Assembly: GCA_947178215.1 (NCBI GenBank) | Contig: CAMWXJ010000015.1 | Span: 1 to 64,000, forward strand | DNA: 64,000 nucleotides | Direction of reading: 5' to 3' | Source of the DNA: an uncultured Porphyromonadaceae bacterium | GTDB lineage: Bacteria > Bacteroidota > Bacteroidia > Bacteroidales > Muribaculaceae | In this document: piece by piece, positions 189 to 11,203 of the stretch | Numbering within the stretch: position 1 is the stretch's first letter | Layout of the letters: each line of letters opens with the position of its first letter | The notes under the pieces: model-generated | What the model was told of the DNA's origin: nothing | Database searches by the model: none | Seen by the model: only the letters and a program-made list of their open reading frames with translations | Made by a program: the position numbers and the translations under genes

Positions 189-3100
189 TCAGTATTCGAC
201 GGCTCTGATAAGGCAGGCGTCGGAGGTCTCCATGTTAGGCAGTGCATTGGTGGCAAACGCGTCGAAATTAAGGGTATAGTAATTTATATCCCACGCGCTG
301 TTACCGCTTTTACCATTATTAGTATTTTCTCCGCACCAGTAAACGGCGCCCGGACGTTTATACAGGTCGTAAAACAGCGGGCGATAGAGGATTTCTCCCG
401 GTGTCTCGTATTTCTGATATCGATTGGAGTAGCGAAGCACACCGCCTCCGAGGATTGGTTCGCCGGCAGCTGCACCACTTCTTGTTGCGTCTTTGCGGCG
501 TCCGTGACCTTCTGCACCTATCGGGAAGAAGATGTTTCGACCGTAATAAATAGGATCGGTCTCATTGTTATTATAAACGAAGCAGCCACGCATACCACGT
601 GTTTTATCGTTGATGTCTCCGTAATATTGGTTTGCCTGTGATACTGAGGTTTGCGTTTCCGTTGCGCCATCGGCATAGAGTACACCAAATCCATTCTGCA
701 TATACGGTCTATTAACAGGATCGAATTGAATCGTTTCGTAATCTTTCTTACTTGCAATCCAACGTCCATTTACACCTTTTTCATCGAATAGCATCCAGAC
801 TTTTTGGTGCCATTCAAACTTATCTGTATCTACGCCATTTGTGGCTTTAATATCATTCCATGATTTTTGTAATACACTTTCTGACGCATCAGACTGCTCG
901 ACGTGAAGGACCTCTAAATTATTAGTTTTTACTCCAAATCCATAAGTGCGGTTGTTGCGTGCAAGTATGGCATCGGCTTGAAACCACTTGAAGTATGAAC
1001 CTTCATCTCGGGGATCGGATGTGTACTTGACGTTATAGGATGGAGACGGTTTTTCATCCAGCGTGGTAGGATTTGACATCGAGTATACATTAAACGACAA
1101 CCATTTTGGGGGAAGTCCGCCTTGATTACGTTTATAATTATATTTACCTGTGAAGTTGTAGTCATCACCGTCGAAAGAAGGTGCTTCGTCGTTAATCGCG
1201 ATGGGTGCGTAGCCCTGTCGCACAAAGATGAGGTGAACACAGGTATAGTTGTGGTAGTAAACACGTATCACTCCGCAGCGAGGTTCGCCATTGTCGCCAC
1301 CCGGGAGTGCCGATTTGGGTTGGAATCGAAATGTGATACTCGTCTGGTCGGCACCTCTGACCACTTCGTTCTGCTCGGTGTTGCTTTGAGTCGCATCACC
1401 TAACGGGGTTATGTTAAACCAATCTCCGGCTGCGATTTCAGCACGCCAGGGCCCGTCGGACTTGAAATCAGAAAAACTTGTGGCGTTATCACCTTCAAGT
1501 CGGAGAAGATGGACGTCAAAACTTTCGGTATTTGACCCCTTTCGCCAGATGCCTTTGGGGTTGACAATACGGCGTACCTGACGGATGTCAACAAAATCTT
1601 CAAATTCCTTGATCTCATCTGTGCCGGGCAGCTTGATGTTGCCGTACACACGGATTTGTGCACGGCGCTGATAAGCGACATAAACGTTGTTGCCGGTATA
1701 TCCGGATGAAGTGACCATATTCTTTGCTCTCGTATAAAGAGGGATGTTGAAGGTAAGTGCAGGACTACCATTTTTACCATCCACATCTTCAACGACCGAA
1801 TAATCGCCATCAGCATCATCTTTATATTCACCTACCTTAGCAGTATATTCGCGTGTGCCACGATTATGACCGGTCCAATATGAATCAAGAAAATCCTTAC
1901 CATATGTATCTGATCCCTGGCCAATCACAGCATCCTTTGTTTTGCGCAGCGACAGGAAGCCAAGTTGCAAACCATTATTACTTCCGGTGTAAACATCTCC
2001 TTTGTAGAAAACATCATCTGTGGGCTTTGAGCCATCCGCATCGTCATTTGACGGCCCCCAGTCGTTGCGGACTATCTCAGCATGCAAATCGCCGACGAGC
2101 TCGCCTACAACCTTGACATTAAGTGTCATGGTGCGGTCGTAGAGATAGGATATATATTGCGGTGACTTGACGTAAATGCCGGGGTCGGGCTCATCGTACT
2201 CGATGTGCCAGTCAACATCATTGGCATAGCCGCGGAATTTCATTGTGAGCTTGTAGTGGAAATTGCGCTCGGCGTTGTAGTCTTTATGGATGTCTTTACC
2301 GAGCATGAAGCGGTAAATGATGGGGCCGTGACCTACTTTCTTTGAGTCATTGTCGGAGGCGGTGAGTCCATCTCCGGAATTACCGGGAATATCGCTCACA
2401 TAGTAACCCTTGACTTCGATATAGGTGCCGTATTTCATTTTATCCTTGTAATACTCATGACTCGAATCGATGCTACCCGGATAAGATACTGATGAGTTTG
2501 CGCCTGTCTTGTCCTGATACTTCACAGGGCCTTCGCCCTGCATATTTTCATAAAAATAGAGGGCTTCATCATCTTCCTTGTGGCTCACCGAGCCACCTCT
2601 GTTTACGGTAGGTCCATTTGACAGATATATGCCGTGGCGGTCAGCGTCGGGTGTATATGTCGGAGTGTCAGATGTGCCGCTCATGTTGGGATAAGTAATC
2701 ATCTCGCCATCAGCGATGAGTTCCTCTGGACTTTTGGGGACGTTGTTTTTGCCAAGTAGACATTCAGTGGGAATGTCCTTGATCTGAACCGAATGTATGA
2801 ATATAGTGACACCGTTTTTAAGCCCCGAAGCATCATACGCAATGGTGATTTTAGAGGCTGCGCGGCGCAGATAGCCGTGAAGCGTCATGTTTGGTTTGTC
2901 GATTCTTACAACGGGTGCCTGATCGGGTAAGGATTCAAAGTTGCCGAGGCTCTTGCCGTCGGTAAAGTAGCCAAACATCTGGGCATTCTCTTTCATCTTA
3001 GCCGTGTTTGTTTCCGGGCTACTCTCATTGTTAATAGGCTTCCAGGTGAGTCGGATGTTTTGTAAGTCTTCTATCGACTCAATCCGCTCACCGTAAGTGG

Positions 3101-3488
3101 CAGTAAAATTCGGTATGTTGCCTACCGCAAAAATCTTGTAGGCTCCGAAAGGTAGAGTGAGATTGAATGTCTTTTTTGCTACGTTGGTTTCATTATCATT
3201 GCCTGCAACAGTTCCCGGAGTAGATTCAGTGATGTCTTGACACTTGATAAAATTACCCTCGTAGTCAAAAACGACAACGGCGAGGTCGTTTATAAATTTG
3301 AGTGCATCACCGGCTGAGCGCGAGTCGGTAAGACCCTCGTCAAACGGCCTGAATGATACTGTGGCTTTAAGCGTTGTCTCTCCTTCCGGAAACGGCCCGG
3401 GTTCGTCAAAATACAAATCATCCTTGCATGACTGCATGCTTGCAGCCAGGCAAAGGAGGGTAAATATGTTGATTAATATGTGTTTCAT
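189..3488 (-). CDS. Large fimbrial tip-like lipoprotein (DUF4906-like)
   Basis: A protein of 1099 residues, last gene of the fimbrial operon. Residues 1-21 form a lipoprotein signal with lipobox MQSC (Cys21), so it should be exported and lipidated. The first 250 or so residues resemble the fimbrillin N-terminal fold (SRSAGD segment, then hydrophobic strands around VVVFDYEG), followed by a long beta-rich region. The C-terminus (WDINYYTLNFDAF, then CLIRAVEY) resembles the terminal module of large Bacteroidales surface proteins of the DUF4906 type. Size and last position suit a tip or adhesin subunit of a type V pilus, but this is inference. Its DNA is AT-richer than its neighbours (27 of 60 G+C in the line from 1021, against 37 of 60 in the line from 8401). 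It starts 32 bases after the preceding gene ends. Confidence 0.65.
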   Translation of the reverse strand: MKHILINIFTLLCLAASMQSCKDDLYFDEPGPFPEGETTLKATVSFRPFDEGLTDSRSAGDALKFINDLAVVVFDYEGNFIKCQDITESTPGTVAGNDNETNVAKKTFNLTLPFGAYKIFAVGNIPNFTATYGERIESIEDLQNIRLTWKPINNESSPETNTAKMKENAQMFGYFTDGKSLGNFESLPDQAPVVRIDKPNMTLHGYLRRAASKITIAYDASGLKNGVTIFIHSVQIKDIPTECLLGKNNVPKSPEELIADGEMITYPNMSGTSDTPTYTPDADRHGIYLSNGPTVNRGGSVSHKEDDEALYFYENMQGEGPVKYQDKTGANSSVSYPGSIDSSHEYYKDKMKYGTYIEVKGYYVSDIPGNSGDGLTASDNDSKKVGHGPIIYRFMLGKDIHKDYNAERNFHYKLTMKFRGYANDVDWHIEYDEPDPGIYVKSPQYISYLYDRTMTLNVKVVGELVGDLHAEIVRNDWGPSNDDADGSKPTDDVFYKGDVYTGSNNGLQLGFLSLRKTKDAVIGQGSDTYGKDFLDSYWTGHNRGTREYTAKVGEYKDDADGDYSVVEDVDGKNGSPALTFNIPLYTRAKNMVTSSGYTGNNVYVAYQRRAQIRVYGNIKLPGTDEIKEFEDFVDIRQVRRIVNPKGIWRKGSNTESFDVHLLRLEGDNATSFSDFKSDGPWRAEIAAGDWFNITPLGDATQSNTEQNEVVRGADQTSITFRFQPKSALPGGDNGEPRCGVIRVYYHNYTCVHLIFVRQGYAPIAINDEAPSFDGDDYNFTGKYNYKRNQGGLPPKWLSFNVYSMSNPTTLDEKPSPSYNVKYTSDPRDEGSYFKWFQADAILARNNRTYGFGVKTNNLEVLHVEQSDASESVLQKSWNDIKATNGVDTDKFEWHQKVWMLFDEKGVNGRWIASKKDYETIQFDPVNRPYMQNGFGVLYADGATETQTSVSQANQYYGDINDKTRGMRGCFVYNNNETDPIYYGRNIFFPIGAEGHGRRKDATRSGAAAGEPILGGGVLRYSNRYQKYETPGEILYRPLFYDLYKRPGAVYWCGENTNNGKSGNSAWDINYYTLNFDAFATNALPNMETSDACLIRAVEY

Positions 3489-3520
3489 ATCAAGAAATGT
3501 GCTGCGGTTATGGCTTCGGT

Positions 3521-4837
3521 TTAGTCAGCGTCAGGATTGTTGTCGGGGTAATCCTCTTCTTTGACGTGCTCCTTGTCGGGGTCATCGGGTTTGTCGGGGT
3601 CTATTCCGAAACCGGGATTGAGTGTAACACCTCTGTATGGCTCCATCTCTACTTCACAACTGATGTTGTTGTGGTCGTTGAATGTGACGTTGACAACGAC
3701 GTGGGTGTTGCGGGGGAGGCGAGGGAGATTTGGCAGTTCTTTGGTTAGTTCGACACCGTTGACGCCGAAGGTTACGGTATAAGTCTGTTCGGTTTTGCCA
3801 TCGGGTATATAGGCGCTTTCAAGGAGGTAGAAGGGCTTCCACTGCGGGTTTGTGAACGACGCATTCACTTCGCTGTTTGTCTTGACGGTGACACCTACTG
3901 AGCGGGTGTATTGTTCGTGGGCGGCGTCGGTGGGGACGGCGTAGTTGTTGTAGAGGTGGGCGGTGTAGAAGGCTTTTTCGCCCTTTATGTCTGTCTGCCA
4001 CTCGGCAACTTTGCCTGTGGCTGTCTCGATGGGTGTGGCGTCGTCGGCAGTTGACGTGTATTCGAGCTGATGCACTATTGTTGAGCCATCGGTTGACTTG
4101 ACGCGGGGGAAGAACCACTCGGTAGTGGCTGTTTTGTCAATCCTAAGTTCAGAAATCTTTACTTGCGCCGAGGATTTGTTGGTGAAGTTGAAGCTGTACT
4201 TGACGGCGCAGCGGTTGAGCATGAAGCTGAGGCTCTGCTTTGATTCAGAACCAATCTGCATCTTGTAGACGGCGGTCATGGGGATGTTGTTTATCATCTC
4301 GTCGCCGACAGGCAGGCTGAGCTTATAGTCGGTGAAGTCGGCGGGGAGTTCTTTGCCCACTACTACTTGATTGAAGTTGTAGTCAACGATGTTGGTCTGG
4401 TTGACGGCGCCGCTTCCGCCGAGCTCGATGTCGCCTCGCTCCGCATGTTCGTTAGCTATCAGGTAGATAGCCTTGGTGTCGTTGGGCGTGACTTCAAGCT
4501 CGTGGGTCACATTAGTGTAATAGTAGTTTTTGTAGTTGTAGAAGCGGTTGTGCTCCACTTTGCCGTTTCCGTCTACGATGATGATTCGTAGCTGATTGAG
4601 CTTTTCGTAGTCGGTAGCCGGGCCCTCTGTGCCGTCGGGTTCACCGGCGCGCGAGCCTCGCGTCACATCTGTTGTGGAGATGTTGAGCGCGAGTGTCACA
4701 GTGGCTTCTGCGGGTGCTGGCGTGTCGACGTCGGTCGAGCAGGCCGACAATGCTCCCGCCGTCGTGGCTGCCGCTACGATGGCTGCTAAGATATGGCCGG
4801 TGGTGAGGCGTAATCGCGTTGTGTGGGTCGGTTTCAT
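3521..4837 (-). CDS. Fimbrillin-like lipoprotein (FimA/Mfa accessory pilin)
   Basis: A protein of 438 residues. The signal peptide ends in lipobox LSAC (Cys33). The mature start is followed by a TRGSRAGEP segment, reminiscent of the Arg sites where type V pilins are trimmed by a trypsin-like protease, then LNQLRIIIVDGNGKV, typical of the first strand of the P. gingivalis FimA-type N-terminal domain. The C-terminus is a Pro/Asp-rich tail (DPDKPDDPDKEH). The start codon overlaps the end of the Mfa2-type gene by four bases (ATGA), indicating translational coupling. It may be a minor shaft or tip-adaptor subunit. The fimbrillin family call is firm; the place in the fibre is inferred. Confidence 0.75.
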   Translation of the reverse strand: MKPTHTTRLRLTTGHILAAIVAAATTAGALSACSTDVDTPAPAEATVTLALNISTTDVTRGSRAGEPDGTEGPATDYEKLNQLRIIIVDGNGKVEHNRFYNYKNYYYTNVTHELEVTPNDTKAIYLIANEHAERGDIELGGSGAVNQTNIVDYNFNQVVVGKELPADFTDYKLSLPVGDEMINNIPMTAVYKMQIGSESKQSLSFMLNRCAVKYSFNFTNKSSAQVKISELRIDKTATTEWFFPRVKSTDGSTIVHQLEYTSTADDATPIETATGKVAEWQTDIKGEKAFYTAHLYNNYAVPTDAAHEQYTRSVGVTVKTNSEVNASFTNPQWKPFYLLESAYIPDGKTEQTYTVTFGVNGVELTKELPNLPRLPRNTHVVVNVTFNDHNNISCEVEMEPYRGVTLNPGFGIDPDKPDDPDKEHVKEEDYPDNNPDAD

Positions 4838-5847
4838 AGTTCGGTGTCATTCAGTCTGACAACCCAGTCGTTGATTTTAATCATTACGTTGTACCACTGT
4901 GCGTCGCCGGTGAGGAAGAATACCATCGACCACTCGCTCTGTCGGTCGAGAAATTCCTGTGATCCCATTTCGGTGTATATGTCGCTTTTGAGGAGCAGGA
5001 GATAGTTGACAAGGGGAATGTCGACAACATTGGCTCCGGTGGCGCGGTTGCGTATGATGAGTCGCGGGCTGTTGGAGGTAACAAATCGTGAGGTGGAGAG
5101 CTCGGCGTAGCCTACGGTGACGTCGGCTCCGGAGTCGTCGGTGCCGGCTGAGGCTGTGCCTGAGGTCCAGGGTGTATATGTGACGGGATTGCCCTTGACG
5201 ACGGAGTTGTCGTGGGCCAATACCGTGTTGTCGTCGGTGATAAGGAAATCGAAGTCGCGGCCGTCGACAGGCGAGCCGCTGAGGTGTTGGAGCACGATGC
5301 GGAGATTGTTGGTGTCCTTCATCATGGGGAGGGTGGTTTCGCCCATCTTGTCGGGCTCAACAGTGACGTCGATTGCGCCATAGTAGAGCGGATGTAGCAA
5401 CGTAGACGATGTAGCGTCGTCGGCGAGGGGCAGGGTCACCGAGAGGTCGGTGAGTGTAGCCGCCGCGGCGGGTGCGGCGTTGGTGTAGGCAAAGGAGGCG
5501 GCGTCGCACTCCATGCCGCCGTAGGCTACCATGCGGTAGGTTCCGGCCGGGAGGTCGAGGCGCATGCGATAGCTCTCGTCGGAGAGCATTGCGCGCGACA
5601 GCTCGGTGCGTGTCTCTACAAAGCGCCCTTCGGAGTCGTAGATGTGGAGAGTCAGACAATCAACTTTTGCGGGGAATGCGTTGGCATACTCCATGTTGTA
5701 GTCATAGACAAATCTCAGCACAACACCCTCGTCGCAGGGGTCGAGGTCATCATAGATTGCGCTGTCGCAAGAGGTCAGCGCTCCCGCCGGCGTGGCCGCT
5801 ATGGCCACGCCGGCAAGCGCACGGACGATGTTTTGTAGAAACTTCAT
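4834..5847 (-). CDS. FimB/Mfa2-type fimbrial anchor lipoprotein
   Basis: A protein of 337 residues with lipobox LTSC (Cys27). The region after the signal (LDPCDEGVVLRFVYDYNMEYANAF, split here as CDEGVVLRFVYD and NMEYANAF) is the hallmark of the FimB/Mfa2 family, which keeps its lipid and anchors the pilus in the outer membrane while limiting its length. DLPAGTYRMVAYGG is also typical. The C-terminal half is beta-rich and ends in INDWVVRLND, a strand like the one ending the major pilin here (LPWVVRVND). It lies 96 bases after the pilin gene, across a polypurine tract. Confidence 0.85.
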   Translation of the reverse strand: MKFLQNIVRALAGVAIAATPAGALTSCDSAIYDDLDPCDEGVVLRFVYDYNMEYANAFPAKVDCLTLHIYDSEGRFVETRTELSRAMLSDESYRMRLDLPAGTYRMVAYGGMECDAASFAYTNAAPAAAATLTDLSVTLPLADDATSSTLLHPLYYGAIDVTVEPDKMGETTLPMMKDTNNLRIVLQHLSGSPVDGRDFDFLITDDNTVLAHDNSVVKGNPVTYTPWTSGTASAGTDDSGADVTVGYAELSTSRFVTSNSPRLIIRNRATGANVVDIPLVNYLLLLKSDIYTEMGSQEFLDRQSEWSMVFFLTGDAQWYNVMIKINDWVVRLNDTEL

Positions 5848-5877
5848 TTATAATGGAGTTGATAGATTAGCGTTAAT

Positions 5878-5935
5878 GGGAGGGGAGAGGGAGATGAGAG
5901 ATAGAGAGAAATGGGGGAGGAGAGAGGAGAAGAGG
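5878..5935 (+). repeat. Polypurine tract between pilin and anchor genes
   Basis: 55 of 58 plus-strand bases are purines, with T only at 5895, 5902 and 5912. The fimbrial mRNA therefore carries a long C/U-rich stretch between the Mfa1-type stop codon and the Mfa2-type start. The sequence contains GAGAG and GGGGAG blocks but no exact repeat unit. A role in setting pilin-to-anchor ratio is speculative. Confidence 0.8.
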
Positions 5936-5943
5936 TAATATTA

Positions 5944-7641
5944 TCAGAAATCGATGTCGTTGACACGTACTACCCAAGGCAGAATCATAACTTCAACGGT
6001 GAAGTAGACATCTTCCTTTTCGTCGGGATCTTCGGGGTCAAACGGATCGGGATCGTCGTCGGGAATGACGGGGTGACCGAGCGAGTTGATGGAGGTGACG
6101 CGCAGCTTGTAGATGTTGTTGCGCACTACCTGGAATTCCATGTGGCCCATTACGGAATTGTTGTCGTTGTTGTTGTGACGGTTCCAGTAGGGATAGTACA
6201 TGGGATAACCATTATCAGCATCGCTGTATTGGTAGCGTGTGAATCCGCCTACGCTTACGGCTGTTGCCTCAGTGCAGTTTTTGTAATCGGCAACGAGGTC
6301 GGTGTAACCGGTCGTATTGTCGCCCAACTCTTCAATAAATTCAGCGATATCATCCCATGAGCCATAGAGATTGCCCTTGTAAGCATAGAGGTCGCTGTGA
6401 GCAGCGATTGCTTCCTTAATATTCTGGGGAGCATTGGCGGTTGCGGTAAGCATGCCCTTGAAGATGACGCCGGTGGTGATACCCTGCCTCTGGTTTGCAG
6501 CGGGCGCGGGAATGGTGTTTTCGGTAGCGTAGCGCCAGATTTTGTAGCCTTTACGTTTGTTAGCGCTGCCATTCCAGCCCTCGAAGTTCTGGTCATCTCC
6601 ATTGAGTACATCGGATATTTTCCATGTGTCCCATGCGGCAGGATTCCAGGTGCCAGCCTGGTTGCCATTACCTGACCAGCAGAAGAAGTTTTCATAGACG
6701 TCTTCATGAATGCCGGCTTTACGATCAGCATCAGTGTCTACAACCCACATGTTATTATCTTCAATGGCCTGGGTGGGCATATCCTTGCCACACAGCTCGT
6801 AATTGTCGATGAGGCCGTTGCGTGATGTGCGCATCAGGTGATAGAAACTCTTGCTGAGGTTTACGAGCGACATTTCGGTGAGCTGAACCTGGAGAATTGT
6901 TTGCTGCTCGTCATTTTTTGCAAATGTATAAGTGCAATTGCCGTCGGAGCCGTCCATGAAGTCGAATCGGGCAACCGAGCGCTGAACTCTCACCGCACCG
7001 TTTCCTGTGAGGGGATACGGATTGTTTTTGTCATTATATAAGCCGGAGTTGATTGCTTCAAGGCCGGGAAGACTGCATTTGGTCATCGACTCATTTGCCA
7101 TAAGGAAATTGTTCTTGCTCCAAATGGATTCGTCTGTTGCAGACTTAATGGTGTGTTGTTCATCTGCCCACAGTGACTTTGCATCTCCTCGTGAACGTCC
7201 TGCTATGTGCGCTTCAAGCTCATCGGTGTAGTTGCAGAAAGCGTAGACCATGACCCAGCCATCCGGCTTATCTTCGAGATAGTTGACGAGCACCGACTTG
7301 TTGAACGTGCCGGTGACCACCAGGTTGGTATTGGTTTGCGAGATGTTGTCGATGGTCTTGTAGGAGATGAAAGAGTTGTCGTCGACATCGGCAAGTACGA
7401 GAAGCACTTTCGACACTTTGTTTTCATAGTCCTTGCCGACTTCCGTGCCGTCGTTGGAAGCGTTACCGGGATTGGTGGTCACGCTTCGTGAGCCGTTGGA
7501 TGTCGGGAGCTGGATTTTAACCGACATGTAGAGTTCGTCGAGAGACTCTTCGGGAGTGTTGACCTCCGGAGCGTCGTCGCTGCACGACCATAAGCCTAAG
7601 GCCATGGCCGGGATGAGCAGATATTTGCCAAATATTTTCAT
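5944..7641 (-). CDS. Mfa1-family major fimbrial subunit
   Basis: A protein of 565 residues with lipobox LWSC (Cys20). The segment ELYMSVKIQLPTSNGSRS followed by KVSKVLLVLADVDD matches the Mfa1 family N-terminus, where the mature pilin is released by cleavage after Arg and the freed strand takes part in strand exchange. Other family-like segments are GAVRVQRSVARFDFMDGS and the closing LPWVVRVNDIDF. As the first pilin gene of the operon it is the best candidate for the shaft subunit. The DNA is AT-richer than the two upstream genes. It lies 63 bases after the DUF3868 gene. Confidence 0.85.
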   Translation of the reverse strand: MKIFGKYLLIPAMALGLWSCSDDAPEVNTPEESLDELYMSVKIQLPTSNGSRSVTTNPGNASNDGTEVGKDYENKVSKVLLVLADVDDNSFISYKTIDNISQTNTNLVVTGTFNKSVLVNYLEDKPDGWVMVYAFCNYTDELEAHIAGRSRGDAKSLWADEQHTIKSATDESIWSKNNFLMANESMTKCSLPGLEAINSGLYNDKNNPYPLTGNGAVRVQRSVARFDFMDGSDGNCTYTFAKNDEQQTILQVQLTEMSLVNLSKSFYHLMRTSRNGLIDNYELCGKDMPTQAIEDNNMWVVDTDADRKAGIHEDVYENFFCWSGNGNQAGTWNPAAWDTWKISDVLNGDDQNFEGWNGSANKRKGYKIWRYATENTIPAPAANQRQGITTGVIFKGMLTATANAPQNIKEAIAAHSDLYAYKGNLYGSWDDIAEFIEELGDNTTGYTDLVADYKNCTEATAVSVGGFTRYQYSDADNGYPMYYPYWNRHNNNDNNSVMGHMEFQVVRNNIYKLRVTSINSLGHPVIPDDDPDPFDPEDPDEKEDVYFTVEVMILPWVVRVNDIDF

Positions 7642-7704
7642 ATTGGTTTGTTTAGTTAAGATGTGTTTGTTGCGTGATTGGTTGGTGGATGTAAGAGTTC
7701 AGGT

Positions 7705-9159
7705 TTAGGGAGCGGGGATGAAGCCGGCGGGGGCGGCGATGTCGTGCACCTGTTGTAGGGCGGCGGGGGCATCGGCCACGCGCAGGCGTGCGGCCTGTCC
7801 GAGCAGCTCGGCAGCCTCGGTGTAGTTGCCTTCGAGTGCGGCGAGTATGCCGCGCGCATAGACCGCTTCGGGAGCGGAGCCTGCGCGGGCAAGGCACTCG
7901 GCGGCGCGCGACAGATGGCCTGAGGCCATTGCGGCGTTGGCGGCGTTGAGGTTAGCCACTTCCGAGGTGGGGTAGACTGTGAGTGCGGCGGCCCATAGGC
8001 GGTCGAAGTCGGCAGTGCCGGGTGTCATGGCCGAGGCTGCTGCATAAAACTCTTCGAGGCTGAGCTTCGAGGGGTTGGTGAATGCGATGTCGCGTATCTC
8101 GGCAGGGTCGGTGAATGAGCGGATAGTGAAGTCGACGTCGTAGTCGGAGTGACGTAGGGCGGGGTAGACTTCACGTAACAGATAGGCGTACTGTGTGGGG
8201 TAATCGGCGCGTATCTTGTTGTCGCGGGGGTCGGGAGCGAGCGATGAATCGATGATGTCGAGAATCGCGTCGCGGTTGTCTATGTCGCTTGCTGCAACCC
8301 ACTTGCGCAGTCCGGCCCAGTCCTCGGGTGTCGATTCGGTCTTCACCACACCCTTGGGGAAGTGGTAGAGGCCGTCTACGTAGTCGGCGAGGGCCTTGGT
8401 GCGTCCTTCGGCAAGACGTGTGTTGTTGGCATACGAGCCTTCGGGCGATGCGTAGCCGTGGATGCGTAGCGAGCGTATCGTGATGTCGCTGTCGTTGCGT
8501 ATGCTGTCGATTGAAGCGATGATTTTCCGGAGCTCTTCGGGGTTGCGGCGGTAGTCGGGGTTGATGTCGGTGCGGTTGACGCGGAAGTCGATGAATGCCG
8601 AGCCGCTGATGTTGCGCTCCTTGACCGCTTCGGCGGTGGGGCGTAAATATATATATGAGGGTACGAAATTGCGTGGACGGTAGTCGAGGCTGCCGAGGGG
8701 GCGTGAGGCGGAGCCTTCGGCTGCACCTCCGCAGCCGCACATGTCGGCTACGAGTGTCACCGTCGATGTCTCCATCCAGGGCTGCCATGGTGTGGTCACG
8801 GCGTAGGCCACACGTTCGCCCTGACGTGCGAGGCGGTCGGAGGGGAGCAGGAGGTCGGGATTTCGCTCGATGCGTATGCGGCGGTTGCGTCCGGGCACCA
8901 CCACAGCGGGGAGCGACACGGAGTTGCCGTGGTCATCGGCTATGACGGGTATGTAGGCTGTCTGGCGGTCGGTGTGCTGGCTCATGCCTTCGAGGTCGAG
9001 GGTCATGGAGAGCGACACCACCGAGTCGGTGCGCGCTACCCTGATGTCGGAGATAGCGGGGAGGGGTACGACGGCGGTGTCGGCGAGTGCCGGTGTGACT
9101 GCGCCGGCTGTCATTATCATTGCAATGGCCGCTGCGGCCGGTAACTGATATATGCGCAT
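7705..9159 (-). CDS. DUF3868 / OmpA-like fimbrial-locus protein
   Basis: A protein of 484 residues with a signal peptide probably cut after PALA (residue 26). The N-terminal 150 residues form a beta-rich DUF3868-type domain. Residues 185-345 resemble an OmpA-type domain (INPDYRRNPEELRKI, then LRIHGYASPEGSYANNTRLA), which in this family contacts peptidoglycan. The last 100 residues are Ala-rich helical repeats of TPR type (LNAANAAMASGHLSRAAECL). Genes of this type sit beside DUF3575 and mfa1/mfa2 genes in other Bacteroidales; tethering the fimbrial apparatus to the cell wall is inferred. It starts 40 bases after DUF3575. Confidence 0.8.
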   Translation of the reverse strand: MRIYQLPAAAAIAMIMTAGAVTPALADTAVVPLPAISDIRVARTDSVVSLSMTLDLEGMSQHTDRQTAYIPVIADDHGNSVSLPAVVVPGRNRRIRIERNPDLLLPSDRLARQGERVAYAVTTPWQPWMETSTVTLVADMCGCGGAAEGSASRPLGSLDYRPRNFVPSYIYLRPTAEAVKERNISGSAFIDFRVNRTDINPDYRRNPEELRKIIASIDSIRNDSDITIRSLRIHGYASPEGSYANNTRLAEGRTKALADYVDGLYHFPKGVVKTESTPEDWAGLRKWVAASDIDNRDAILDIIDSSLAPDPRDNKIRADYPTQYAYLLREVYPALRHSDYDVDFTIRSFTDPAEIRDIAFTNPSKLSLEEFYAAASAMTPGTADFDRLWAAALTVYPTSEVANLNAANAAMASGHLSRAAECLARAGSAPEAVYARGILAALEGNYTEAAELLGQAARLRVADAPAALQQVHDIAAPAGFIPAP

Positions 9160-9199: not shown

Positions 9200-9805
9200 T
9201 CAGAACACGTAGACGAGGTTGATGGCGGCCTTTGTGGGGCCTACATAGTTGTGGTGTCCCGACTCTTCCTTGCGGCCGCAGGTGGCGCAGGGGTATTTGT
9301 CGTAGGTGGCGTAGACCCATCCGAGACCTATCTCGGCTTCAAGATTCCAATGGCGGTTGAGCATCCATGTGTGGCCGTAGGCGATGCCGAGGCCTCCATA
9401 CCATCCCTGAAAGCGGTGGTCGCGGAGTTCGCGGTAGTCAGTGCCGAGAAACTTGAAGGGGAGGTCGAGGTTGCCGAAGTTGTACTGACCTCCGAGGAGG
9501 TGGGCGGCGACGAAATTGCCGCCGAGGGCCTCGCAGAACCAGTAGCGCGCTTCGGGCTGTATCATCCAGTGTTTCCAGCGCTTGTCGTTGCCTATGGTCC
9601 AGCCGTTGAAGTTGGCCGAGAGGTCGACTGACCATTTGGGCGCTACCTGCATCTCAGCTCCGGCGTTGATGGTGGCAGTAGCGTCGTAGAACAGATTGGT
9701 TTTGAGGGCCACGTCGTGCTGGGCGCAAATTCCCGGCGTGGCGATGATTGCCGCGAGACATATGGCTGCGACGGCAAACAGTCTTTGGAGCGACTTTGTC
9801 AACAT
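9200..9805 (-). CDS. DUF3575 outer-membrane beta-barrel-like protein
   Basis: A protein of 201 residues and the first structural gene of the fimbrial operon. Residues 1-28 are a signal peptide (cut near ICAQ). The mature start, ALKTNLFYDATATINAGAE, and APKWSVDLSANFNGW are characteristic of DUF3575, a family of small predicted barrels with alternating polar and hydrophobic strands, ending in aromatic VYVF like other outer-membrane barrels. Four cysteines include a CATCG pair near residue 178. The ATG at 9805 is preceded by a leader of about 330 bases with a G9 run; the stop of an alternative upstream reading frame overlaps this ATG. Confidence 0.8.
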   Translation of the reverse strand: MLTKSLQRLFAVAAICLAAIIATPGICAQHDVALKTNLFYDATATINAGAEMQVAPKWSVDLSANFNGWTIGNDKRWKHWMIQPEARYWFCEALGGNFVAAHLLGGQYNFGNLDLPFKFLGTDYRELRDHRFQGWYGGLGIAYGHTWMLNRHWNLEAEIGLGWVYATYDKYPCATCGRKEESGHHNYVGPTKAAINLVYVF

Positions 9806-9925
9806 GATAGTGGTAGGGTGTGACGAAGAGTCACCACAGCCCGCGAGGGGTGGCGACGGATATGACGAATCAACCCGCAGGGCTTGCCGGCGAGGTGATA
9901 AGTGGTTGAAAATAAATATGGTGGC

Positions 9926-10012
9926 TTAGAAATGGGGGGGGGTAAAACTCAACCGGAGGCGACTATGAGCCGTCTCTGCACAATGTGTAAGATGTGATGA
10001 CACCCTGAACAT
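9926..10012 (-). CDS. Possible leader peptide containing a C9 run
   Basis: A candidate 28-codon ORF begins with ATG at 10012 (MFRVSSHLTHC...) and ends at TAA 9928-9926, two codons after the C9 run. Reading through 10 C instead gives 46 codons. Reading through 8 or 11 C leaves the frame open to a TGA at 9801-9799 that overlaps the DUF3575 ATG. No ribosome-binding site or homology supports translation; it is reported only for the frame arithmetic. Confidence 0.25.
   Translation of the reverse strand: MFRVSSHLTHCAETAHSRLRLSFTPPHF
9934..9942 (+). repeat. Mononucleotide G9 run in the fimbrial leader
   Basis: Nine consecutive G on the plus strand (C9 in the fimbrial transcript), 129-137 bases before the DUF3575 start. 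It is the longest G or C run I noticed in the window. Runs of this length commonly vary by slipped-strand mispairing in surface-structure loci of other bacteria. Confidence 0.85.
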
Positions 10013-10105
10013 TATATTATTGATTCTACCCTGAGGTGATATGTTGGTTTCCTGATTATTAATCCCTTAACTGACGACGAACTGTCAAGTGCAGTGATGT
10101 AGGAC

Positions 10106-10130
10106 TCGGGATGTGTGTGCAACATCCCGA
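10106..10130 (-). promoter_or_regulatory. Hairpin at the 5' end of the fimbrial leader
   Basis: TCGGGATGT pairs perfectly with ACATCCCGA around a 7-base loop. It lies within about 10-30 bases downstream of the predicted start site, so it should sit near the 5' end of the fimbrial mRNA, where it could stabilise the transcript or be a protein target. Function unknown. Confidence 0.55.
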
Positions 10131-10142
10131 CTATATTTGCTG

Positions 10143-10150
10143 CAAAGTTA
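10143..10150 (-). promoter_or_regulatory. Promoter -7 element, fimbrial operon
   Basis: TAACTTTG on the minus strand is an exact match to the Bacteroidetes -7 consensus TAnnTTTG. No TTG lies at the ideal 19-22 base distance upstream; a TTG at 10165-10163 is too close. Transcription should start near 10139. Confidence 0.6.
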
Positions 10151-10273
10151 TAGATAATATTTCAAGGTGCGAAATTTTTGACCTATAAAAGTGTTATGAA
10201 TCTTATATTTTTGATAATTCCATAAGTAAAGACAGGGAAGGTGGGAGCGGCAGTGTGTGTCGGTGTCGGCGGC

Positions 10274-11203
10274 TCAGCCAATCATTGATAGCGCCGCGCG
10301 GTATTTGGCCGGGGTCATGGCCTTGTGGAGCGCTTTCCACGCCTTGCGCCCTATCTCGGCTTCGGAGTACTCCCAGAAGGGCTTTATCTTTGACAGTATC
10401 TGGCTGTCGCCACAGAGTGTGCGGCAGTAGTGAGCGTAGAGCCTGTCGTGGAGCCGTAGCATAGCGTCGAGGCGTCGGGCACGGTCCCACTCGCCGCCTC
10501 CGGCATACTCGGCGAAGAGCGATGGACGGCCTACGAGACCGCGTCCCGCCATGACTCCCGCCAATCCGGGGTAGCTTTCGGTGACTGTGTCGATATCGGC
10601 AGGCACGAGCAGGTCGCCGTTGAAAATCACCGGGTGGCGGCACTCGCTGAGAAATGCGGCAAACTCCTCGCGGTGGAGCTCGCCACGGTACTGCTGCTTT
10701 GCCGTGCGCGGGTGCATTGTGACGGCGGTCAGCGGCATGCCGTTGATTGTGTCGACTACGGCGCGCCACTCGTCGGGCCGCGTCATGCCGGGCCTCATTT
10801 TCAGCGAGAAGTCGACGGAGGTATATTCGGCCATTACCGATGCGATGTCGGGGAGCAACGCGAGGGATGCGGCTCCTCGGCCTCGTGCCGTTTGGAGTGG
10901 AAAGGGGCATCCGCAGTTGAGGTTTATCCTGCCGGCGCCGGCGGCTACGAGGCTGTCGACGAGCCGCCGGAACTCTTCGGCGGTGCCGAAGATAATCTGG
11001 GGGATGAGGTCGACGCCTTCGTTGAGCGGCGACGTGAAGTCGCGCATGTCGTGGCGGCGCGGATCGTTCTTTTCGAGTCTGACGAACGGAGTGTAGTAGG
11101 TCACGGCGGCGGCTCGCTGGCAGTCCCCGTAAATCTCGCTGTGTAGCCGGCGCCACGCTGCGTCGGTGTGGCCTTGCAGCGGAGCCGCATGAAGAGTGGT
11201 CAT
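10274..11203 (-). CDS. tRNA-dihydrouridine synthase family protein
   Basis: Likely 309 residues. I chose the ATG at 11203 (MTTLHAAPLQGHTD) over an in-frame TTG at 11233 because APLQGHTD aligns with the APM-G-TD start of the Dus fold, where FMN binds. The active-site cysteine lies in NLNCGCPF. MRPGM, TMHPRTAKQQY and VIFNGD are the usual FMN and tRNA contact strands, and MAGRGLVGRPSLF is the C-terminal TIM-barrel phosphate loop. The enzyme should reduce uridines in tRNA with NADPH. Which position it modifies cannot be told. It follows dnaJ by 78 bases on the same strand, with no consensus promoter between them. Confidence 0.85.
   Translation of the reverse strand: MTTLHAAPLQGHTDAAWRRLHSEIYGDCQRAAAVTYYTPFVRLEKNDPRRHDMRDFTSPLNEGVDLIPQIIFGTAEEFRRLVDSLVAAGAGRINLNCGCPFPLQTARGRGAASLALLPDIASVMAEYTSVDFSLKMRPGMTRPDEWRAVVDTINGMPLTAVTMHPRTAKQQYRGELHREEFAAFLSECRHPVIFNGDLLVPADIDTVTESYPGLAGVMAGRGLVGRPSLFAEYAGGGEWDRARRLDAMLRLHDRLYAHYCRTLCGDSQILSKIKPFWEYSEAEIGRKAWKALHKAMTPAKYRAALSMIG

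What the first reader, a model, noticed from the sequence alone, without database searches (positions are those of the whole stretch)
9799..10012. Homopolymer run that could switch a fimbrial leader ORF
The fimbrial leader has C9 (in RNA) inside a small ORF from ATG 10012. With C9 the ORF stops at 9928-9926. With C10 it runs to 46 codons. With C8 or C11 the frame is open all the way to TGA 9801-9799, which overlaps the DUF3575 ATG at 9805-9803. I checked each codon. Run-length change could therefore turn translational coupling of the first fimbrial gene on or off, a form of phase variation distinct from promoter inversion. That the leader ORF is translated is unproven.
Basis: partly seen in the sequence, partly recalled or inferred. 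Interest (0 to 1): 0.72.

Follow-up and report, generated by a model that had tools for sequence, protein, structure and literature searches.

The report
Poly-G tract before fimbrial operon
A run of nine Cs in front of a gut bacterium's fimbrial genes appears to be one of a family of similar G/C runs, most of them ending in the same two letters, that sit before or inside surface-protein genes and look like slippage-driven on/off switches.

Summary
The narrow claim, run-length-controlled coupling of a leader ORF to DUF3575, is weakly supported. The paralogous fimbrial leader in the same genome has a C8 run in the same place and an ATG also 70 nt upstream, but no run length tried there (C6-C12) makes an ORF reaching the DUF3575 start, and the two leader ORFs show no codon-level conservation.

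The wider pattern is stronger. In this Muribaculaceae-like genus and near kin, G/C runs of 8 or more lie upstream of 21 of 31 DUF3575 loci. Runs of 9 or more are followed by TA in 44 of 58 cases in four genomes of the family, against 222 of 1042 in the rest of the sampled order. Tracts occur as promoter spacers between TTAA repeats and the -7 box (36-38 nt in 19 of 23), in or out of frame at the start of SusC-like genes (9 and 3 of 12), and as C runs in leaders, as here. Four of 8 homologous tract pairs differ in length.

Best reading: a slippage-type contingency tract. How it acts in this leader is open; reversible switching was not testable.

The parts
9934..9942 (-). C9 tract (G9 on the + strand, followed there by TAAAA)
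9926..10012 (-). leader ORF as assembled (C9), 28 codons; translation unproven
   Evidence: paralog has an ATG at the same distance from its run; no codon-level conservation
9799..10012 (-). extent of the leader ORF if the run were C8 or C11
   Evidence: not matched in the paralog, where the longest frame ends at -25
10142..10150 (-). predicted -7 promoter box TAACTTTGC, 345 nt before the DUF3575 ATG and about 200 nt before the run
   Evidence: consensus match only; paralog has TACCTTTGC at -342; -7 consensus TANNTTTGY from PMC12632263 passage
9830..9857 (-). hairpin just before the DUF3575 start, kept in the paralog
   Evidence: 10 pairs in this stem, 1 with both sides changed; only two sequences
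10106..10130 (-). 9-bp hairpin near the predicted transcript start; not seen in the paralog alignment
9200..9805 (-). first gene of the fimbrial operon, DUF3575 (PF12099)
   Evidence: E 4e-72
189..9159 (-). rest of the operon: TPR/DUF3868-like (weak), Fimbrillin_C protein, Mfa2-like anchor, a protein without Pfam match, FimA/DUF4906-like (weak) large protein

Best explanation
The C9 run is a homopolymeric contingency tract: it gains and loses bases by slipped-strand mispairing and so varies expression of the fimbrial operon between cells. It is one of a set of G8-10 tracts, mostly followed by TA, that this genus has at surface genes. Shown by sequence: the set, its TA-biased flank, its placement, length differences between homologous members, and, in about 20 promoters, the tract as spacer between TTAA direct repeats and the -7 box. 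Inferred: slippage during growth and the effect on expression. At this locus the tract lies in the 5' leader, about 200 nt past the predicted promoter. The most concrete mechanism I can offer is that run length decides which of three frames ribosomes take from the leader ATG, and that only one frame carries them into the hairpin before the DUF3575 start and opens it (about 0.3 on its own). The rest of the confidence is for a variable tract with another effect on the leader.
For: G/C run of 8 or more within 550 nt upstream in 21 of 31 DUF3575 loci (20 of 30 without the window, hand count), against about 0.5% expected from the own genome's density of such runs. TA after runs of 9 or more: 44 of 58 in four genomes of the family, 222 of 1042 in the other genomes of a 247-genome order sample. 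Promoter spacing: TTAA-pair-to-box distance 36-38 in 19 of 23, permutation P 0.0004. SusC-like genes: 9 of 12 tracts in frame with an upstream ATG, 3 not. Length differences in 4 of 8 homologous pairs, clearest L276/L280, C11 and C10 with near-identical flanks. Paralog leader keeps run, ATG distance and three-frame layout.
Against: No within-species run-length data. Leader ORF without codon-level conservation; tests on other homologous leaders ambiguous. The leader's only homolog found in 34 genomes of the genus is the own-genome paralog, and the paralog run differs by substitution, not length. Only 1 of 7 DUF3575 loci from named records has a run of 8 or more. G9 runs as such are not in excess in the window. 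Two genomes of the genus show only a weak TA bias (5 of 21, 4 of 16, hand count).
Confidence: 0.55

Rival explanations
1. One reading: with C8 or C11 the leader ORF overlaps the DUF3575 start and couples its translation; other lengths switch it off.
For: Frames correct. Six leaders in a sister genome (G028) also have an ORF from an upstream ATG crossing a C run, 4 of 6 continuing in the longest frame.
Against: In the paralog no run length from C6 to C12 reaches the DUF3575 ATG. In the six G028 leaders the ORFs end 37-119 nt before the gene, too far for overlap coupling. No codon-level conservation.
Confidence: 0.15
2. The tract works at the DNA level as a promoter spacer or binding site, as it seems to do at many sister loci.
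For: Composite TTAA-repeat/G-tract/-7 promoters elsewhere, including fimbrial ones.
Against: Here the tract is about 200 nt downstream of the only predicted box, it points the other way, and one search's runs-and-box listing shows no TAnnTTTG between run and gene. A promoter of another type is not excluded.
Confidence: 0.15
3. The C run acts in the RNA without an ORF, for example as a C-rich loading site for Rho, so that length tunes premature termination.
For: Poly-C as a Rho ligand is recalled, not searched. The stretch after the run is C-rich and little structured in the fold.
Against: No test made here of Rho sites; inference only.
Confidence: 0.12
4. The run is a chance or assembly feature without function.
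For: About 0.3 such runs expected in a window of this composition; the genome is a 48-contig assembly.
Against: Run at the paralogous position and in 21 of 31 related loci, mostly with the same TA flank.
Confidence: 0.08

Closest known systems
Neisseria meningitidis porA promoter poly-G tract
   Same: A poly-G tract inside a promoter changes expression of an outer-membrane protein (abstract start of PMC3639595 in the listing). Matches the promoter-spacer tracts found at sister loci.
   Different: At this window the tract lies in the predicted leader, not in the promoter; the neisserial tract was tested by experiment, this one was not.
Bordetella fim promoter poly-C tracts
   Same: Homopolymer length governs a fimbrial operon (recalled; the search gave no dedicated paper).
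   Different: Different fimbriae, bacterium and, here, position of the tract.
Coding homopolymer contingency genes of Neisseria, Campylobacter and Helicobacter
   Same: Runs near the 5' end of surface genes, in or out of frame (listing). Matches the SusC-like class.
   Different: Here most tracts have a 3' TA, and one set spans promoters, coding starts and leaders.
Invertible promoters of gut Bacteroidales (capsule, SusC/D, fimbriae)
   Same: Same gene classes made phase-variable in the same order of bacteria (passages of PMC12632263).
   Different: Site-specific inversion; no inverted repeats of 10 bp or more here. That review's main text has no occurrence of 'homopolymer' or 'slipped'.

Membership tests
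Simple-sequence contingency locus (slipped-strand phase variation) | a simple-sequence tract of mutable length at a surface gene | tested here: met
   C9 at 9934-9942 before a fimbrial operon
Simple-sequence contingency locus (slipped-strand phase variation) | length differs between homologous copies | tested here: inconclusive
   4 of 8 homologous pairs elsewhere differ; for this very locus only a paralog, differing by substitution
Simple-sequence contingency locus (slipped-strand phase variation) | high-rate, reversible length change within a strain | not testable with these tools
   no reads and no second genome of the species
Simple-sequence contingency locus (slipped-strand phase variation) | length changes expression | not testable with these tools
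   needs reporters or transcripts
Promoter-spacer tract (porA, Bordetella fim type) | tract between an upstream element and the core promoter | tested here: not met
   window tract about 200 nt past the predicted box; met at sister loci, 19 of 23 at 36-38 nt
Invertible promoter | promoter between inverted repeats | tested here: not met
   no inverted repeats of 10 bp or more in 9600-10500
Frame-switched leader ORF with translational coupling | leader ORF conserved at codon level, overlapping the gene start in one frame | tested here: not met
   overlap present in the window, absent in the paralog; no codon-level conservation

The most novel reading that the evidence does not exclude
Muribaculaceae carry a dedicated hypermutation module: a G8-10 tract with a near-fixed 3' TA, recognised as a sequence by a cellular factor, that has been placed in promoters (as spacer after TTAAC repeats), at signal peptides and in leaders of fimbriae, SusC-like receptors and glycan genes, giving a slippage-based phase-variable surface repertoire beside DNA inversion.
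Probability: 0.2. Interest if true: 0.85.

Novelty: new variant of a known kind. Interest (0 to 1): 0.6.

Why it matters
Phase variation in gut Bacteroidales is described as DNA inversion (passages of PMC12632263). A slippage-based set covering fimbriae, SusC-like receptors and glycan genes in an abundant gut family would mean that surface states are written in run lengths, which assemblies flatten to one value and inversion-finding tools do not look for. It can be tested on existing deep reads. The 3' TA shared by promoter, coding and leader tracts has no explanation that I found.

Tried and rejected
Invertible promoter: no inverted repeats of 10 bp or more. Known RNA family in the leader: three matches, all far below their family's threshold; the two hits are elsewhere. 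Leader homologs in 34 genomes of the genus: the C2 paralog; the other hits are 20-46 bp at E 0.0027 or worse. Protein-coding leader ORF: window/C2, L276/L280 and L216/L245, ambiguous at best. L216/L245 share an open frame and a short segment whose differences I read by eye as synonymous, but over the aligned stretch 42 of 53 differing codons in that frame are non-synonymous. L276/L280 show no third-position bias in the open leader frame. Leader-type loci elsewhere by a run-plus-promoter pattern: 7 matches in 4 of 34 genomes, of which only some look like leaders.

Literature. In the listed titles and abstract starts (one search listed 20 of 60 papers) I saw none on homopolymer phase variation in Bacteroidota. 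Passages only were read in PMC12632263 and PMC11868660. Preprints and most subscription journals are not held.

Biases. The 209-run pool is not a random sample: it holds loci fetched for DUF3575 similarity, 58 regions that I chose from the listing (five genomes, TA and non-TA runs), and loci of a TA-containing pattern. Runs near locus ends or with further G6/C6 in the flanks were dropped. In one search the boxes come from loci mostly fetched for a run. Related loci are not independent, so P values are guides. Several genomes outside the family also have a high TA share on small counts (5/5, 7/8, 4/5, 4/5, 5/7), so the bias is not confined to the family. Promoter-class runs without TA exist (3 of 33 non-TA runs have a box at 15-23 nt).

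Full report
Observation. The minus strand carries C9 at 9942-9934 in the leader of a fimbrial operon. The operon starts with DUF3575 (PF12099, E 4e-72), followed by a protein with weak TPR/DUF3868 matches, a Fimbrillin_C protein, an Mfa2-like anchor, a protein without Pfam match and a large protein with weak FimA/DUF4906 matches. G/C runs of 7 and 8 are absent from the window and 9 occurs once; a first-order Markov model expects 0.3. No call names the organism. The best named protein match is a Muribaculaceae MAG at 65% identity, so 'Muribaculaceae' is inferred.

The paralog test. The genome holds two more DUF3575 operons, on C2 and C7. The C2 leader is the only strong match to the window's leader among 34 genomes of the genus. 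It has C8 at the same place, an ATG also 70 nt upstream of the run, and a predicted promoter at -342 against -345. The three frames after the run end at -120, -64 and +7 in the window and at -116, -66 and -25 in the paralog. So in both leaders one frame stops at once, one stops before a conserved hairpin (one pair changed on both sides) and one goes into or past it. That parallel favours a frame-based device. Against it: the paralog never reaches the DUF3575 ATG; the leader ORFs differ by 2 synonymous and 17 non-synonymous codons without position bias, and another frame is as similar. The 9-against-8 difference is a substitution.

The wider pattern. Upstream of DUF3575 in this genus and near kin, a G/C run of 8 or more lies within 550 nt in 21 of 31 loci, the window included. 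Of the ten misses, two have runs of 6 or 7, and three are cut by contig ends, one of them with only a run at the contig end. The own genome's density predicts about 0.5% per locus. Among seven loci from named records only one has such a run, inside the DUF3575 coding start and out of frame (L096). The feature therefore belongs to this genus and near kin, not to the gene family at large.

In the own genome 23 runs of 8 or more remain after leaving out two at a contig end, and 16 of the 23 are followed by TA. They include three fimbrial leaders; upstream regions of SusC-like genes (two confirmed by Pfam; others by their N-termini); the start of four SusC-like genes, one out of frame; a UDP-sugar dehydrogenase gene; and the first codons, from a GTG start, of a sensor-like protein. 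Whole-genome counts of TA after runs of 9 or more give 44 of 58 in four genomes of the family and 222 of 1042 in the others of a 247-genome order sample. In the pooled loci it is 134 of 188 (104 TAA or TAG), against 29 of 444 for runs of 5-6. By genome, from the capped listing without contig-end runs: G006 10/12, G028 12/20, G016 6/9, G008 11/12, G014 8/11, G004 5/21, G002 4/16.

Promoter class. Of 147 TA runs, 28 have a TAnnTTTG box 14-24 nt downstream; 23 of these have a TTAA direct pair 9-11 bp apart upstream. The distance from its proximal copy to the box is 36-38 in 19 of 23 although the run's place between them shifts (correlation of the two gaps -0.68, permutation P 0.0004). Among 315 boxes, such pairs fall at 35-39 nt in 18 of 38 cases with a G run near and 2 of 15 without. 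The run is thus a spacer in a composite promoter, and a length change would shift the repeats against the core.

Coding class. Twelve runs lie just before a SusC-type N-terminal segment: 9 in frame with an upstream ATG, 3 not. Others lie early in two acyltransferase genes (PF01757).

Leader class. The window belongs here with its paralog and six leaders in a sister genome (G028) before genes whose N-termini look like signal peptides; one of the six has Fn3-associated domains, five no Pfam match. In all six an ORF from an ATG 18-50 nt upstream crosses the C run; it continues in the longest frame in 4 of 6 and ends 37-119 nt before the gene. Whether these ORFs are translated is open.

Length change. 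Of eight homologous tract pairs found by flank similarity, four differ (9/10, 10/11, 9/6, 10/7). L276/L280, paralogous leaders in one genome with C11 and C10 and near-identical flanks, is the clearest. This shows mutability, not reversible switching.

Conclusion. The run is best explained as one of a set of homopolymer contingency tracts of this genus. Its effect here must lie in the leader if the predicted promoter is right; frame-dependent passage of ribosomes into the start-proximal hairpin is the most concrete proposal and is unproven. In ten literature searches (listings) I saw no paper on homopolymer phase variation in this group; a 2025 review of gut Bacteroidales speaks of inversions and does not use the words homopolymer or slipped (word counts and passages).

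Noticed in passing
G000 C1:48498 (L075, L191): C9 in the first codons (GTG start, signal-peptide-like) of a long sensor-like protein; in frame as assembled. Could make a regulator phase-variable.
   Followed up: partly
G000 C4:89827 (L044) and G006 (L137): C9 near codon 59 of a UDP-glucose/GDP-mannose dehydrogenase gene; a similar gene in G006 also has such a run.
   Followed up: partly
L096 (CALVDU010000034.1): G8-TA tract inside the start of DUF3575 itself, out of frame with the upstream ATG found.
   Followed up: partly
G030, whole genome: All 15 runs of nine or more G are followed by T, the strongest bias seen.
   Followed up: no
L247 and L257 (G030): In-frame C9 runs early in two acyltransferase genes (PF01757).
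   Followed up: partly
G028 L155, L157-L160, L169: Six leaders with C9/C10 runs before large secreted-looking proteins, each with a short ORF crossing the run.
   Followed up: partly
L146 1664-1848: Rfam match to Bacteroidales-1 RNA (6S-like) near a run-bearing gene.
   Followed up: no
window 10106-10130: Hairpin TCGGGATGT...ACATCCCGA right after the predicted transcript start.
   Followed up: no
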